Below, in pieces: positions 8,649 through 32,219 of a stretch of 42,630 nucleotides of DNA (positions within the stretch are counted from its first letter, which is position 1; each line of letters starts with the position of its first letter). The position numbers and the translations under genes are program-made. The DNA comes from Mesorhizobium sp. (GTDB lineage: Bacteria > Pseudomonadota > Alphaproteobacteria > Rhizobiales > Rhizobiaceae), in NCBI GenBank assembly GCA_004020545.1, contig SAQE01000055.1, positions 1 through 42,630 on the forward strand, given 5' to 3'. Below the pieces are notes generated by a model. It did not search any database. It saw nothing but the letters and a program-made list of their open reading frames with translations, and was not told where the DNA came from.

Positions 8649-11600
8649 ATGCCGCAGAATAGCTTTGGAGGCCGCAAGGCGACGGGATTGAAGTATCTGT
8701 TGCTGACGTCGACCGCGCTGGTCGGTCTTGGCCAGCCGATCGCCGCCACCGCTGCAGAGACCTGGACCGGCGCTGTCTCCACGGACTGGTTTACCGCAGG
8801 AAACTGGAGCCCCGGATCGGTGCCGTCAGCGGCCGATAATGTCACCATCAACACGATCGCGATCAACCCGACCATCATCAACGGCGGAAATGCCTTTGCC
8901 GCCGGCCTCACAATTGCAGGTGGCCCTTCTTTAACCGGTGGTCTGACCATTTCGAATGCCGGCACCCTCACCAGCCAAGACGGTACCTTGGCATATTCAG
9001 CAACCTCCAATGCGTCGGCAACGGTCACGGGTGCCGGCTCCTCGTGGAGTACTTTCGCCAATTTCATAGTTGGATATGGGGGCACCGGCACGCTGAGCGT
9101 TGCCAGCGGCGGCGTTGTGAATGATCTCAATAGTTATGTCGGCTACGTTTCCGGCTCCTCTGGTACGGCCACGGTTGATGGCGCCGGGTCGCAATGGAAC
9201 AGCACGGGCAATCTCTATGTCGGTCTGGGCGGCATCGGCTCGGTGACGGTTTCAAATGGCGGTCTGTTGTCGGACGATCTTGCCAATATTGGCGGGGGGT
9301 TCTCAGCCTCCGGCACCGTGGTGGTGACGGGGGCAGGCTCGGCCTGGACGAACGCTTCCCAGGTGACCGTCGGCGATCAGGGCACCGGCTTTCTGGACAT
9401 ATTCAGCGGCGCAACCGTAACGGATGTGACCGGCATTGTTGCCGCGAATGCCGGCTCCCATGGCACGGTGAATGTCTCCGGCGCGGGATCGACATGGACG
9501 AACAGCGGGATCCTGACGATTGGCCAGAGCGGCACCGGTACGATGATCGTTTCCGCCGGTGGTGTCGTGAACGATGTGCGTGGCTATGTTGGCTACAACA
9601 CCGGCTCCAGCGGCACTGCTACCGTTGATGGCTCGAGCTGGAACAACAGCACCTATCTTGATGTCGGCTATGGCGGAACCGGAACGTTGCACGTTGCCAA
9701 TGGAGGCACGGTTTCCGACATTATCGGTTTCATCGGCAGTTTGACCGACGCCAGTGGTGCCGCAACCGTCGACGGCGCGGGTTCGACGTGGACCAACACC
9801 AGCGACATCGTCGTTGGCTTGGGCGGCACAGGCACGCTGGCGATCACCAATGCCGGAACCGTCACAAGCGGCGTCGGCTTCATAGCCGACTATCTTGGTG
9901 CCACCGGCACGGTCACGGTCGACGGTGCGGGATCGGCATGGACCAACACCGGCAAGCTTTATATTGGAAATGGTGGAAGCGGCGCCCTCACAGTTTCTAA
10001 CGGCGGTGCTGTCACTGACCACAACGCCTATATTGGTTACGCTGGGAGTTCTTCCGGCACTGTTACCATTGATGGCTCGAGCTGGAACAACAGCACCTAT
10101 CTTGATGTCGGCTATGGCGGAACCGGAACGTTGCACGTTGCCAATGGAGGCACGGTTTCCGACATTATCGGTTTCATCGGCAGTTTGACCGACGCCAGTG
10201 GTGCCGCAACCGTCGACGGCGCGGGTTCGACGTGGACCAACACCAGCGAGATCGTCGTTGGCTTGGGCGGCACAGGCACGCTGGCGATCACCAATGCCGG
10301 AACCGTCACAAGCGGCGACGGCTTCATAGCCGACTATCTTGGTGCCACCGGCACGGTCACGGTCGACGGTGCGGGATCGGCATGGACCAACACCGGCGAT
10401 CTTTATGTTGGGAATGGCGGAATCGGCACGATTGCCATCACCAATGGCGGCACTGTCATGAACAATCTCGGCTTTGTCGGATACGCTGGGAGTTCCTCTG
10501 GCACGGCCACCGTCGATGGCACTGGCTCTACCTGGACTAATAGCGGCGATCTGCATGTTGGTGAGGCCGGCACCGGCACGCTCCATATCTCAAACGGCGG
10601 TGCCGTGTCTGACGTCAATGCACTTGTTGCATATGATGTAGTTTCCTCAGGCGCAGTAACTGTGGATGGCTTGGGATCGACGTGGACTAACAGCGGCTAT
10701 CTTGGAGTGCAGGGCAACGGCACCCTCGCCGTCACCCAGGGCGGTACGGTCATCAGCAGCGATGCCAATGTCGGTAGCGCTCCGGGGACGACGGGTACGG
10801 CTATCATCGATGGCGTCGGCTCGAATTGGACTATCGCCAGCAGTTTGATTTTGGGAGTGGCCGGGAACGGTGTCCTTACCGTCAGCAATGGCGGCTTGGT
10901 GTCAGATGTCGATGGGTTTGTCGGATACTACGGCGGATCCAGCGCCCTGGTAACAGTCGACGGTTCTGGCTCCAAATGGGTAAACAGCGGCGATTTGAGG
11001 ATTCTAAGCGCCGGCATGGTGTCCGTCACCAACGGCGGCGAGATCACCGATACCAATGGCATGATTGGGACAAGTGCCGGTGAAATCGGCACTGTCACTA
11101 TTGATGGCGCGGGGTCGAAATGGACCAACGGTGCGGACCTTTACGTCGGCAACTCCGGCGACGGCACCTTGGCCGTCTCCAAGGGCGGTGCGGTTACAGT
11201 TGCCGGGAACCTGTTCATCGCGAATCAGGCGGGCTCCGTGGGCACGGTGAACATCGGCGGCGCGGCCGGATCGGCGGCTGCGGCAGCCGGAACTGTCACC
11301 GCGGCGGGAATCCAGTTCGGCGCAGGCACGGGGACACTCAACTTCAACCACACCGAAACGAACTACGGTTTTGCCTCCGACATCAGCGGCGCGGGCATGA
11401 TCAACCAGCTGGCCGGCGTCACAAAGCTGGCCGGCAATTCCTCCGGCTTCACCGGCACGACGAACGTTTCCGGCGGCGGCCTCTATGTCAACGGATTGCT
11501 CGGCGGTGTGATCAACGTCACCGGCGGCCCGCTTGGCGGGTCGGGCACGGTAGGCAATGTGACCATTGCTTCAGGCGGGAGCTTTGCGCCGGGTAATTCC

Positions 11601-13028
11601 ATCGGCACGATCAATGTTGCCAACGCGACTTTTTCGGCAGGTTCGGTCTATGCCGTCGAATTGGAAAGCGGCGGTACGTCGGATCTGATCAACGCCACCG
11701 GCACGGTCACCATCAATGGCGGCACGGTCGATGTCATTGCCTATCCCGACTATGCGCTCGGCACGACCTATACGATCGTGACGGCGGCTGGCGGTGTCAC
11801 CGGCAGCTTCGACAGCGCGGCCTTCGCTGGCACGATATTTATCGCACCGACGCTCACTTACGACGCCAACAACGTCTACCTCGATTTGGTCGAATTGACC
11901 TTTGCCGATCTGGGGCTGACGGCGAACCAGAAGGCCGCTGCGGCAGGCGCGGAATCGCTTGGCGCCGGCAATGCGCTTTATGATGCAGTCTACGCACTTG
12001 GCACCGCGGCCGAAGCACAGGCCGCCTATGACGCAGTCTCCGGTGAGATCCATGCCTCGACCAAGGGGATGCTGCTCGAGGACAGCCGCTTCATTCGCGA
12101 TGCCGCCACCAACCGCGTCAGCGACGCCTTCGGCGAAGCTGGCGCGGCGGCATTGCCGGTCATGGCCTATGGCGAAGGCGGACCGGAGATGGTCGCGGCC
12201 GACACCGATCGCTTCGCCGTCTGGGGCCAAGCCTTCGGTTCGTGGGGCGACACCGGCAGCGACGGCAACGCCGCCGCCTTCGACCGCTCGACCGGCGGCC
12301 TCCTGGTAGGCGCCGACGGCCTGGTAGGCGACTGGCGTGTCGGCCTCCTCGGCGGCTACAGCCATTCCTCCTTCGATGCCGATGCCCGCAATTCCAGCGG
12401 CAAAGCCGACAGCTATCATCTCGGTCTCTATGGCGGCACCAATTGGGGCGCCATCGCCTTCCGCTCGGGCGCCGCCTACAGCTGGCATGCGGTGTCGACC
12501 GGGCGATCGGTCGCCTTCACCGGTTTTGCCGACACGCTGTCCGCCGACTACGACGCCGCCACGGCGCAGGCATTCGGCGAGCTTGCCTACAAGATGGACG
12601 CCAACCGGTTCCAGTTCGAACCGTTCGCCGCCCTCGCCTATGTCAATGTGAAAACCGACGGCTTCACCGAAAAGGGCGGCGCTGCCGCGCTGATCAGCCA
12701 GGGCAGCAATAGCGACGCCACCTTCGCCGCGCTTGGGCTGCGCGCTTCCACCGATTTACGGCTCGGCGGGATCAAGGCGACGGCGCATGGCACGCTCGGC
12801 TGGCGCCATGCCTTCGGCGATGTCACGCCGACCTCGACCTTCACCTTCGCCGGCGGCGACGCCTTCACGATCGCAGGCGTGCCTGTCGCAAAGGACAGCG
12901 CGGTGATCGAGGTCGGATTTGACCTGCCGATGTCGGCCAATGCGACGCTCGGCCTGTCCTATGCCGGCCAGTTCGGCTCCCATATCGCCGACAACGGCGC
13001 CAAGGCCAAACTCGACGTCAGGTTCTGA
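8649..13028 (+). CDS. Type V autotransporter (large repeat-rich adhesin-like passenger)
   Basis: 1459 residues. The N terminus has a hydrophobic signal segment (LKYLLLTSTALVGLGQPIAA) ending at AETWTG. Residues ~123-868 are about 15 tandem units of ~50 residues with consensus TVDGAGSTWTNSGDLYVG..GTGTL.VSNGGTVSD, the repeat class shared by type V secretion and PEP-CTERM proteins; these form a beta-solenoid. A passenger-associated strand segment (GTVGNVTIASGGSFAPGNSI) comes near residue 980, then a linker. From about residue 1180 a 12-strand autotransporter barrel runs to the terminal LDVRF. Function is probably adhesion or surface display; no protease motif was seen. Units 5-7 and 8-10 are almost identical at DNA level (a 444-bp duplication). 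Two neighbouring regulators probably control it. Confidence 0.93.
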   Translation: MPQNSFGGRKATGLKYLLLTSTALVGLGQPIAATAAETWTGAVSTDWFTAGNWSPGSVPSAADNVTINTIAINPTIINGGNAFAAGLTIAGGPSLTGGLTISNAGTLTSQDGTLAYSATSNASATVTGAGSSWSTFANFIVGYGGTGTLSVASGGVVNDLNSYVGYVSGSSGTATVDGAGSQWNSTGNLYVGLGGIGSVTVSNGGLLSDDLANIGGGFSASGTVVVTGAGSAWTNASQVTVGDQGTGFLDIFSGATVTDVTGIVAANAGSHGTVNVSGAGSTWTNSGILTIGQSGTGTMIVSAGGVVNDVRGYVGYNTGSSGTATVDGSSWNNSTYLDVGYGGTGTLHVANGGTVSDIIGFIGSLTDASGAATVDGAGSTWTNTSDIVVGLGGTGTLAITNAGTVTSGVGFIADYLGATGTVTVDGAGSAWTNTGKLYIGNGGSGALTVSNGGAVTDHNAYIGYAGSSSGTVTIDGSSWNNSTYLDVGYGGTGTLHVANGGTVSDIIGFIGSLTDASGAATVDGAGSTWTNTSEIVVGLGGTGTLAITNAGTVTSGDGFIADYLGATGTVTVDGAGSAWTNTGDLYVGNGGIGTIAITNGGTVMNNLGFVGYAGSSSGTATVDGTGSTWTNSGDLHVGEAGTGTLHISNGGAVSDVNALVAYDVVSSGAVTVDGLGSTWTNSGYLGVQGNGTLAVTQGGTVISSDANVGSAPGTTGTAIIDGVGSNWTIASSLILGVAGNGVLTVSNGGLVSDVDGFVGYYGGSSALVTVDGSGSKWVNSGDLRILSAGMVSVTNGGEITDTNGMIGTSAGEIGTVTIDGAGSKWTNGADLYVGNSGDGTLAVSKGGAVTVAGNLFIANQAGSVGTVNIGGAAGSAAAAAGTVTAAGIQFGAGTGTLNFNHTETNYGFASDISGAGMINQLAGVTKLAGNSSGFTGTTNVSGGGLYVNGLLGGVINVTGGPLGGSGTVGNVTIASGGSFAPGNSIGTINVANATFSAGSVYAVELESGGTSDLINATGTVTINGGTVDVIAYPDYALGTTYTIVTAAGGVTGSFDSAAFAGTIFIAPTLTYDANNVYLDLVELTFADLGLTANQKAAAAGAESLGAGNALYDAVYALGTAAEAQAAYDAVSGEIHASTKGMLLEDSRFIRDAATNRVSDAFGEAGAAALPVMAYGEGGPEMVAADTDRFAVWGQAFGSWGDTGSDGNAAAFDRSTGGLLVGADGLVGDWRVGLLGGYSHSSFDADARNSSGKADSYHLGLYGGTNWGAIAFRSGAAYSWHAVSTGRSVAFTGFADTLSADYDAATAQAFGELAYKMDANRFQFEPFAALAYVNVKTDGFTEKGGAAALISQGSNSDATFAALGLRASTDLRLGGIKATAHGTLGWRHAFGDVTPTSTFTFAGGDAFTIAGVPVAKDSAVIEVGFDLPMSANATLGLSYAGQFGSHIADNGAKAKLDVRF
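9626..9953 (+). repeat. Internal duplication in autotransporter, copy 1
   Basis: 328 bp matched at 10070-10397 with only two differences that I can see (agcgaCatc/agcgaGatc and ggcgTcggc/ggcgAcggc). The offset is 444 bp, i.e. 148 codons or three repeat units (50+50+48 residues). Confidence 0.9.
10070..10397 (+). repeat. Internal duplication in autotransporter, copy 2
   Basis: Second copy of the segment at 9626-9953. The 116 bp between the copies (9954-10069) and after them (10398-10513) are also related but far more diverged. This suggests a recent in-frame duplication or gene conversion over about 330 bp. Confidence 0.9.
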
Positions 13029-30947: not shown

Positions 30948-31037
30948 TTAGAGCGTTACCGACGAGCCGTTGGCGGCCGTGACGGCGGAAAGCTTTCCAC
31001 GCTTGTCAAGCGTCGGCTTGCTGTATGCCTTCTTCAT
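30948..31037 (-). CDS. Putative RiPP precursor peptide 1 (29 aa)
   Basis: 29 residues. Leader-like part MKKAYSKPTLDKRGKLSAVT, then a short tail AANGSSVTL. The YxxPxL element plus a Thr near the leader end is the layout of lasso-type precursor leaders, where YxxP binds the RRE protein and the Thr sits at -2. The tail has no Asp/Glu, so a normal lasso ring cannot form. AAGGGGG precedes the ATG. It lies 87 bp downstream of peptide 2 on the same strand. Rhizobial genomes contain similar orphan 'putative RiPP precursor' genes, as I recall. The coding call is supported mostly by the match to peptide 2. Confidence 0.72.
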   Translation of the reverse strand: MKKAYSKPTLDKRGKLSAVTAANGSSVTL

Positions 31038-31124
31038 CGAGATTCCCCCTTGAACACGATCTGCGCAAAATGAGCGCCGCGGGGAGCGATTGTCAAGTTT
31101 GGACGGTCGGCGGCCGGGCGGATC

Positions 31125-31217
31125 TCAGAACGTGAATCCGGACGACGGCGCGGCGGCGGTCACAGCCGAAAGCCTGTCGCGCTTTTGCAGCCTGGGCTTT
31201 TCGTAGATCTTCTTCAT
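31125..31217 (-). CDS. Putative RiPP precursor peptide 2 (30 aa)
   Basis: 30 residues, beginning MKKIYEKPRLQKRDRLSAVT and ending AAAPSSGFTF. Aligned with peptide 1 it keeps MKK, Y, KP, L, KR, LSAVTAA, while the tail differs; this pattern of constant leader and variable core is typical of ribosomal natural-product precursors. AGGA lies ahead of the ATG. It starts 69 bp after the stop of the 310-residue gene on the same strand, so co-transcription is likely. No cyclase, protease or RRE gene is present in the window. Confidence 0.75.
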   Translation of the reverse strand: MKKIYEKPRLQKRDRLSAVTAAAPSSGFTF

Positions 31218-31286
31218 CGTCCGTTCCTGGGCGGGTCAACGACCGGCGCAGGTGAGCGCGATGTGGCCGCCCTGTCAAGCACGCCC

Positions 31287-32219
31287 TTAGCCCGCATGCT
31301 GCAGCCAGCGGCGGTCGAACACTTCGATGATGGCGCGGAATTCGGCCGGCGGAATCTGGTTGACGCCGCCGTCGCTTTCGGCGCTGAGGAACCGGCCTAG
31401 CTGCCGGTCGACCGCGTCCGGATGCTCGATGACGATGCCGAGGCTCGCCAGGTCGGCGGCGATCGAGGTTCCAGGCGGCAAGTACCCGCCCCATTGTTCG
31501 GCGGCGGGCGCATCGCGCAGGCGCACCAACAAGATCCTGGTGAGCGAGGGCTGCGGCTCGGGGCCGATGATAGCGGTGCCGCACATATAGCCGCCGAGCA
31601 CACTCACCGGCTGCGTCTGCGGAAACAGGCAAAGGAAGAACTGCGCCTCGCCGCCGACCTCCTTCAGATGCAGATAGAGGCTGCGCTTTGCCGGCGTGAC
31701 CGGGCCGCCGAGCTGCAACTGGCCGGTCGGCAACGTCTCGCGATAGGTGGCCGTGAACCCATGCACGCCCGGACCGGCCTCGATCGACAGGCGGCCCCTG
31801 ATGAGCTGGCCGCGATAATAGGGCGACCAGGCGCGTGAATAGCAGGCGTAGGTCCCGGCAAGCGCCAGGCCGACGCCCTTGTCGTCGTGCCCGGGCGAGG
31901 CCTCCGACTGGGCGCTTGCGCGGCGTTCGAGCTCCGCCGTGTCGATGCCGTGGCGTGCCGCTATCGTGGCCGCGAAGGTCGGCAGATCGCTCTCGGCGAT
32001 CCAGGCGCCGGGCTGTTCGAGGCGCAGCACCTTCGCCCAATCTTCATAGACGCTGTGCTCGCGAGGCTGGGCGCGGCCCTGCAGCCATTTATCGGCGCGG
32101 CCGACATCGAACGCCGTCCTCGGATTGACGGCGCGGAACGCCGCCGCCAGGTCCTTGCGGGTGGCGGTTCCCAGCACGACCGAAGTCAGCCGTAGCTTCT
32201 GCGCGATATTCAGTGCCAT
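31287..32219 (-). CDS. Unrecognised 310-residue protein upstream of the peptide genes
   Basis: 310 residues. The N-terminal ~90 residues look like a divergent helix-turn-helix domain (IAQKLRLTSVVLGTATRKDL, ADKWLQGRAQPREHSVYEDW). The remainder (~115-300) is a mixed alpha/beta region with GTYACYSRAWSPYYRGQLIR, GYMCGTAIIGPEPQ and GGYLPPGTSIAADL that I cannot assign. No signal peptide or membrane helix. It is first in a same-strand run with the two peptide genes, so a regulator of them, perhaps ligand-responsive, is the simplest idea. That link is by position only. Confidence 0.8.
   Translation of the reverse strand: MALNIAQKLRLTSVVLGTATRKDLAAAFRAVNPRTAFDVGRADKWLQGRAQPREHSVYEDWAKVLRLEQPGAWIAESDLPTFAATIAARHGIDTAELERRASAQSEASPGHDDKGVGLALAGTYACYSRAWSPYYRGQLIRGRLSIEAGPGVHGFTATYRETLPTGQLQLGGPVTPAKRSLYLHLKEVGGEAQFFLCLFPQTQPVSVLGGYMCGTAIIGPEPQPSLTRILLVRLRDAPAAEQWGGYLPPGTSIAADLASLGIVIEHPDAVDRQLGRFLSAESDGGVNQIPPAEFRAIIEVFDRRWLQHAG

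What the first reader, a model, noticed from the sequence alone, without database searches (positions are those of the whole stretch)
30948..32219. Orphan twin RiPP-like precursor peptides behind an unrecognised protein
Two tandem ~30-residue genes share a constant leader (MKK-Y-KP-L-KR--LSAVTAA) but different tails (ANGSSVTL versus APSSGFTF). This is the signature of precursor peptides with constant leader and variable core. The YxxPxL plus Thr layout is lasso-like, yet neither tail has the Asp/Glu needed for a lasso ring and no B1, B2 or C enzyme is in the window. They may be matured by a distant enzyme, by a novel chemistry, or act as short signals. The 310-residue protein on the same strand could be a regulator or modifying partner.
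Basis: partly seen in the sequence, partly recalled or inferred. Interest (0 to 1): 0.8.

Follow-up and report, generated by a model that had tools for sequence, protein, structure and literature searches.

The report
Lasso-like peptide precursors without cyclase
Two tiny genes in this soil bacterium belong to a large, scattered family of peptide precursors that appear to be processed by a single distant enzyme set resembling the lasso-antibiotic machinery but lacking its ring-closing enzyme, so they probably yield short, chemically tagged linear peptides of unknown use.

Summary
Two tandem 29/30-aa minus-strand genes (30948-31037, 31125-31217) share a leader, differ in the tail and are under purifying selection. 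The same Mesorhizobium genome has five more copies, one directly upstream of a lasso-type PqqD-like RRE, B2 protease and HprK-like kinase, faced by a nucleotidyltransferase. In 146 Mesorhizobium genomes the peptides (104) track the module's B2 (97): all 97 have peptides (3-28 matches each); 42 of 49 B2-less genomes have none. In 297 family genomes 18 of 19 peptide carriers have it. The 310-aa neighbour does not track them (p 0.72). Leader spacing and T(-2) fit cleavage after Ala21, leaving cores of 5-19 aa (mode 9); all 128 sampled cores have Ser/Thr, and no cyclase was found in 24 regions around the B2. Most likely: RRE-guided phosphorylation, perhaps nucleotidyl/hexosyl transfer, on a core Ser/Thr and B2 cleavage give short linear tagged peptides. 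RefSeq names one relative 'putative RiPP precursor'; my searches found no description of a cyclase-free, many-precursor system. Chemistry, expression and function are untested.

The parts
30948..31037 (-). Precursor P1, 29 aa; inferred leader 30975-31037 (21 aa, ends VTA), inferred core 30951-30974 (ANGSSVTL)
   Evidence: (E 5.9e-16)
31125..31217 (-). Precursor P2, 30 aa; inferred leader 31155-31217 (21 aa, ends VTA), inferred core 31128-31154 (AAPSSGFTF)
   Evidence: (E 6.2e-17)
31045..31051 (-). Shine-Dalgarno-like AAGGGGG of P1
   Evidence: RBS-like 4-mers in 93 of 115 family members vs a mean of 11.0 in control windows
31224..31230 (-). Shine-Dalgarno-like CCAGGAA of P2
31091..31096 (-). 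TTGACA (-35-like) element of P1, first base 59 nt upstream of the ATG
   Evidence: the consensus scan found no sigma-70 promoter here
31273..31278 (-). TTGACA (-35-like) element of P2, first base 61 nt upstream of the ATG, in the gap between P2 and the stop of the 310-aa gene
   Evidence: the consensus scan found no sigma-70 promoter here
31287..32219 (-). 310-aa neighbour protein; judged NOT part of the system
   Evidence: p 0.72; no Pfam/NCBIfam match listed at E up to 10

Best explanation
P1 and P2 are two of seven dispersed precursor genes (each with its own start signals) served in trans by one enzyme module at contig C177:88.6-91.7 kb of the same genome. Shown by sequence and co-occurrence: precursors and the module B1(RRE)-B2-HprK-like kinase-PF14907 nucleotidyltransferase go together; catalytic residues are conserved; no cyclase was found beside the module. 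Inferred: the RRE grips the YxxPxL leader and presents the short core to the kinase, which phosphorylates a Ser/Thr of the core; the nucleotidyltransferase may then add a nucleotidyl or hexosyl group to the phosphate; B2 cuts after Ala21, releasing a linear tagged peptide (8 and 9 residues for P1 and P2) instead of a lasso. Biological role (signal or toxin-like peptide) is a guess.
For: Peptide (E<=0.01) x module B2 (E<=1e-5) in 146 Mesorhizobium genomes: 97 both, 7 peptide only (1-2 hits each, three of them marginal, E 0.003-0.008), 0 B2 only, 42 neither; p 1.1e-29. 297 family genomes: 18/1/2/276, p 1.2e-25; 9 genera shared, 1 and 1 discordant; one of the two B2-only genomes (G386) has four peptide-like frames near its module, picked by eye from a loose pattern scan that also returned chance frames; G367 stays B2-only. 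The 4 peptide carriers outside the family at order level all have a module-type B2 (B2 was not sought in the genomes without peptides there). Peptides sit beside the module in other genera. B1, B2 and kinase together in 19 of 20 fetched regions. Leader register Y-17, P-14, L-12, T/V-2 as in lasso precursors (vs passages of PMC10368454). Kinase His-Lys-Asp-Asp in 49 of 49 distinct sequences, B2 Cys/His 50 of 50, NTase KG and DxD 18 of 18. Kinase model pLDDT 92.3; best folds PEPCK (TM about 0.5), HprK/P at rank 49. PadeK, PsmK/PsmN and BsfK precedents.
Against: No chemistry, transcript or product seen. At genus level the canonical lasso cyclase is also commoner in B2+ genomes (full or nearly full length in 90 of 97, against 11 of 49 B2- genomes), so discordant genomes carry the argument. 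Co-occurrence within one genus is not corrected for phylogeny. In one genome (G409) a precursor lies next to an AsnB-like gene. No -10 box was found. I saw no exporter conserved in the module. The kinase is below cut-off for every named HprK model.
Confidence: 0.62

Rival explanations
1. The precursors are substrates of the canonical lasso cluster of the same genome (C177:56.8-64.3 kb), whose cyclase acts in trans to make lasso or other macrolactam peptides.
For: That cluster exists, with B1, B2, C, kinase, ABC transporter and NTase genes, about 27 kb from the second module; cyclase full or nearly full length in 90 of 97 B2-module genomes.
Against: Eleven Mesorhizobium genomes have the cyclase but not the module: 7 have no peptides, 4 have 1-2. 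G016, G033, G050 and G126 lack the cyclase at E 1e-40 yet have 6, 6, 7 and 15 peptide matches. Cores are 7-12 aa in 112 of 128 and only 11 of 128 have D/E at core position 7-9. The canonical cluster has its own precursor with G1...D9. In 23 genomes (these 4 Mesorhizobium and the 19 from other genera that hold the module B2) one search listed 33 remote matches of 24-34% identity; 30 were examined and 29 of them start MCG like asparagine synthetases, 1 unresolved; 3 were not examined (two in G016, one in G050).
Confidence: 0.1
2. The kinase and nucleotidyltransferase do not touch the core: the products are plain linear peptides released by RRE+B2, and the kinase/NTase act on something else or on the leader.
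For: No core position is invariant; kinase substrate untested; two of 20 regions lack the NTase.
Against: The kinase is present in 19 of 20 regions; Ser/Thr in 128 of 128 cores, Ser in 121.
Confidence: 0.17
3. The 30-residue genes act unprocessed (small regulatory proteins or toxins), with the 310-aa protein as regulator.
For: Adjacent, same strand; promoter-like elements of their own.
Against: 310-aa protein does not co-occur; lasso-type leader register and module linkage.
Confidence: 0.06

Closest known systems
Lasso peptide biosynthesis (split B1/B2 type)
   Same: PqqD-like RRE B1, B2 Cys-His protease (NF033537 over cut-off), YxxPxL leader with T(-2)
   Different: No cyclase found in 24 of 24 regions around the module B2; cores of mode 9 aa, most without the ring acid; many dispersed precursors
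Kinase/NTase-tailored lasso peptides: paeninodin (PadeK), pseudomycoidin (PsmK/PsmN), BsfK (PMC9266682 and PMC10368454, passages seen)
   Same: HprK-like kinase with the same His-Lys-Asp-Asp set and an accompanying nucleotidyltransferase; RRE helps phosphorylation (BsfB1)
   Different: Those are lasso clusters with a cyclase; here kinase and NTase remain and C is absent
RefSeq 'putative RiPP precursor' (WP_258589706.1, Mesorhizobium sp. AR02 plasmid)
   Same: Same leader: MKKKYEKPVLTKRDRLGSVTAQVVVISGPVA
   Different: A name only; no enzyme system is attached to it in the 8 kb seen, and the plasmid collection has no match to the module B2
Prochlorosins (ProcM with scattered precursors; recalled, no call)
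   Same: One enzyme set serving many dispersed precursor genes
   Different: Lanthipeptide chemistry, unrelated enzymes

Membership tests
Lasso peptides | RRE (B1, PqqD-like) and B2 leader peptidase | tested here: met
   Remote module: PF05402 43.3 bits (cut-off 23.4), PF13471 45.2 (26), NF033537 69.3 (33); co-occurrence. Physical interaction with P1/P2 untested
Lasso peptides | Leader YxxPxL at -17..-12 and Thr(-2) | tested here: met
   128 of 133 distinct matches passed a filter requiring Y/C/H, P and L/F/I/V at these places (and at most 50 aa), so P is 128/128 by construction; within them Y 126, L 115, T(-2) 89, V 26, A 13. P1 and P2 have Y, P, L and T
Lasso peptides | Macrolactam cyclase (C) with the system | tested here: not met
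   Own genome: the only PF00733 match listed on C177 is in the canonical cluster. No hit to that cyclase in 20 regions of 15-19 kb (1e-4), nor in the 4 further-family modules: about 18 kb for L223 and L224, only about 3.3 kb around B2 for L232 and L233 (1e-3)
Lasso peptides | Asp/Glu at core position 7-9 for the ring, core long enough to thread | tested here: not met
   11 of 128 cores have D/E at 7-9, 5 of them with 4 or more residues after it; P1 and P2 have none
NCBIfam lasso_leader_L3 / lasso_cyano | Score over curated cut-off | tested here: not met
   P1 16.7 (cut-off 19) and 22.5 (33); P2 no match
Lasso-type HprK-like peptide kinases | Conserved His-Lys-Asp-Asp catalytic set on HprK/PEPCK fold | tested here: met
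   H137, K160, D177, D178 in 49/49; fold search; HprK/P by profile, P-loop stretch only. NCBIfam and Pfam HprK models all below cut-off
RiPP | Genetically encoded precursor post-translationally modified and cleaved | not testable with these tools
   Needs mass spectrometry

The most novel reading that the evidence does not exclude
A distinct RiPP class, evolved from lasso machinery by losing the cyclase, in which one RRE-protease-kinase-nucleotidyltransferase set turns up to 28 separately expressed precursors per genome into a library of short linear Ser/Thr-phospho-nucleotidyl (or phospho-glycosyl) peptides, extended in some genera with an acyl-ligase/GNAT pair.
Probability: 0.35. Interest if true: 0.9.

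Novelty: new variant of a known kind. Interest (0 to 1): 0.72.

Why it matters
It ties hundreds of scattered precursor-like genes of Mesorhizobium (885 profile matches in 97 module-bearing genomes) to a defined enzyme set, and suggests lasso parts working without the defining cyclase. It makes a direct test possible: what do lasso-type kinases and nucleotidyltransferases do to short linear cores, and why does one genome keep many substrates with their own start signals for one enzyme set?

Tried and rejected
310-aa protein as partner: rejected by co-occurrence; its AlphaFold model was unusable (pLDDT 48.7); no PADLOC match.

Canonical cyclase in trans: weighed above. In 23 genomes one search listed 33 remote matches, 30 with loci; 29 start MCG like asparagine synthetases, one (L257, G367) had no resolved start, 3 were not examined.

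Shared promoter: TTGAC within -90 to -25 in 73 of 115 (70 of them at -52 to -72), against 53 of 952 control ORFs and 4.2% of shuffles. The control is rough (first ATG of any frame of 120 aa or more, many not real genes), and the 115 are not independent: 47 of 88 non-redundant ones carry it. No -10 hexamer emerged, so no sigma factor is assigned.

Plasmid collection: the module B2 has no match; two plasmids hold partial precursor-like matches (E 0.5-0.6). Literature: ten searches showed no cyclase-free lasso-like system in the listings; the library holds only open-licence PMC papers, so this is weak evidence of absence. Papers: passages of PMC9266682, PMC10368454, PMC13352647, PMC11006600; all others only as listings with abstract starts.

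Dropped rows: 5 of 133 distinct peptide matches failed the pattern/length filter; 13 of 128 were left out of the promoter and RBS counts (start not M/V/L, or too little upstream DNA). The 128 come from fetched loci (mostly best matches), not from all matches, were found with a profile that itself contains Ser columns, and a few have a one-residue shift in the leader. For the NTase count only 18 sequences of 300 aa or more were used.

Full report
WHAT IS THERE. The window is a whole contig (C139) of a 6.99 Mb genome. The 310-aa protein has 84-93% identical homologues on eight named Mesorhizobium contigs, 74-75% on two more and 85% in a Hyphomicrobiales MAG. P1 (30948-31037, minus) and P2 (31125-31217, minus) are exactly as reported. 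They agree at 15 of 21 leader positions; the best chance pairs agree at 8-10. Among 20 P2-like and 6 P1-like distinct homologues pN/pS is 0.26 and 0.19; in P1 the leader is more constrained (0.10) than the core (0.45), in P2 both are alike (0.26, 0.24).

NOT ORPHANS. The genome holds seven family members: the pair, three on contig C18, one on C88 and one at C177:88593. The C177 copy lies directly upstream of a PqqD-like 95-aa protein, a lasso B2 protein (NF033537, 69 bits, cut-off 33) and an HprK-like protein, faced by a PF14907 nucleotidyltransferase. About 27 kb away is a separate, canonical lasso cluster with cyclase and its own precursor (inferred core GGAGTTALDAAFPAHTPFDQLTFS).

CO-OCCURRENCE. 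In 146 Mesorhizobium genomes the precursor profile (E <= 0.01) hits 104, the module B2 97 (one match each); 97 both, 7 peptide only with 1-2 hits, 42 neither; p 1.1e-29. Matches in B2+ genomes: 3-28, median 8. Of the 7, four (G019, G020, G118, G134) have a single PF13471 protein, and all four carry the canonical cyclase; three (G097, G120, G130) are marginal hits. The 310-aa protein is independent (p 0.72). In 297 genomes drawn from the family (109 genera; five of the positives from the same genus) 19 have peptides (E <= 0.001), 20 the B2 (E <= 1e-20), 18 both; by genus 9 shared, 1 and 1 discordant. At order level 10 of 297 genomes have peptides (E <= 1e-4), 4 of them outside the family; those 4 all have a PF13471 B2 of the module type; B2 was not sought in the rest. 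Outside Mesorhizobium the peptides often sit next to the module, e.g. ten within 2 kb in L186. None of this is corrected for phylogeny.

THE MODULE. In 20 regions chosen because they hold the B2 (15 non-Mesorhizobium), B1 and kinase are in 19, NTase in 18; one region (L197) shows B2 alone. No homologue of this genome's cyclase appears there or in the four further-family modules (two of these seen only within about 3.3 kb). In 8 of the 15, homologous AMP-binding and GNAT genes lie beside the NTase; Pfam names rest on L186 (both) and L189 (GNAT). Catalytic residues among distinct sequences: B2 Cys73/His110 50 of 50, kinase His137/Lys160/Asp177/Asp178 49 of 49, NTase Lys172-Gly173 and Asp191/Asp193 18 of 18. 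The kinase model (pLDDT 92.3) matches PEPCK best (TM about 0.5, normalised by the query) and HprK/P at rank 49; its profile finds HprK/P by sequence over the P-loop stretch (E 2e-5).

THE PRECURSORS. In 128 distinct members (133 before a filter on the Y-P-L pattern and length) Y, P and L stand 17, 14 and 12 residues before the junction after Ala21, with T (89), V (26) or A (13) at -2; this is the spacing reported for lasso precursors (PMC10368454, passages). Cores are 5-19 aa (mode 9), rich in Pro, Ser and Gly; all have Ser or Thr. Eleven have an acid at 7-9 and five of those at least four residues behind it, so a ring is unlikely for most, not excluded for all. RBS-like 4-mers precede 93 of 115, and TTGAC stands upstream in 73 of 115 versus 53 of 952 control ORFs: separate transcription units are likely, transcripts unseen.

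MECHANISM. Kinases PadeK, PsmK and BsfK phosphorylate lasso precursors, PsmN adds hexose to the phosphoserine or acts as nucleotidyltransferase, and BsfB1 aids both phosphorylation and cleavage (PMC9266682 and PMC10368454, passages). The same parts minus cyclase, acting on short Ser/Thr cores, most simply give linear tagged peptides. Presence of parts and partnership are shown by sequence and co-occurrence; phosphorylation, tagging, cleavage site and role are inferred.

AGAINST. The canonical cyclase is itself enriched in B2+ genomes (90 of 97 full or nearly full length, 2 split, 5 without a hit at 1e-40; 11 of 49 in B2-). What separates the two is discordance: cyclase without module goes with 0-2 peptides (11 genomes), module without cyclase with 6-15 (G016, G033, G050, G122, G126; G122 is 79% complete). 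A precursor in G409 lies upstream of an AsnB-like gene with intact MCG start. I saw no exporter conserved in the module.

NOVELTY. RefSeq already calls one relative 'putative RiPP precursor'. NCBIfam lasso leader models fall below cut-off. The ten literature searches listed under Tried and rejected showed no such system. I file it as a new variant of the lasso-derived RiPP kind and not as a lasso peptide, because the cyclase and ring-acid features were tested and not met.

Noticed in passing
L186, L189, L190, L191, L195, L196, L199, L200 (regions of unnamed family genomes): AMP-binding ligase plus GNAT acyltransferase homologues beside the module in 8 of 15 non-Mesorhizobium regions; L194 has a formyltransferase-like gene (PF00551) with homologues in L192 and L193. 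Possible extra tailoring.
   Followed up: partly
L252:1387-3375 (G409): A precursor-like peptide (MKKLYEKPTLLKRAVLSAVTAAIQNSLQKLP) immediately upstream of an AsnB-like protein with intact MCG start.
   Followed up: partly
L038 (C177:56.8-64.3 kb): Canonical lasso cluster with kinase and nucleotidyltransferase; inferred precursor core GGAGTTALDAAFPAHTPFDQLTFS. Homologous cyclase full or nearly full length in 101 of 146 Mesorhizobium genomes, split in G051 and G078.
   Followed up: partly
window 8649-13028: 1459-aa autotransporter-like protein with long internal repeats (identical short frames 444 bp apart).
   Followed up: no
L267:4001-4093 (Mesorhizobium sp. AR02 plasmid): Unannotated precursor-like frame MKKTYEKPVLTKRERLPSITALVPISAVGK (read) about 3.3 kb from an annotated 'putative RiPP precursor'.
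   Followed up: no
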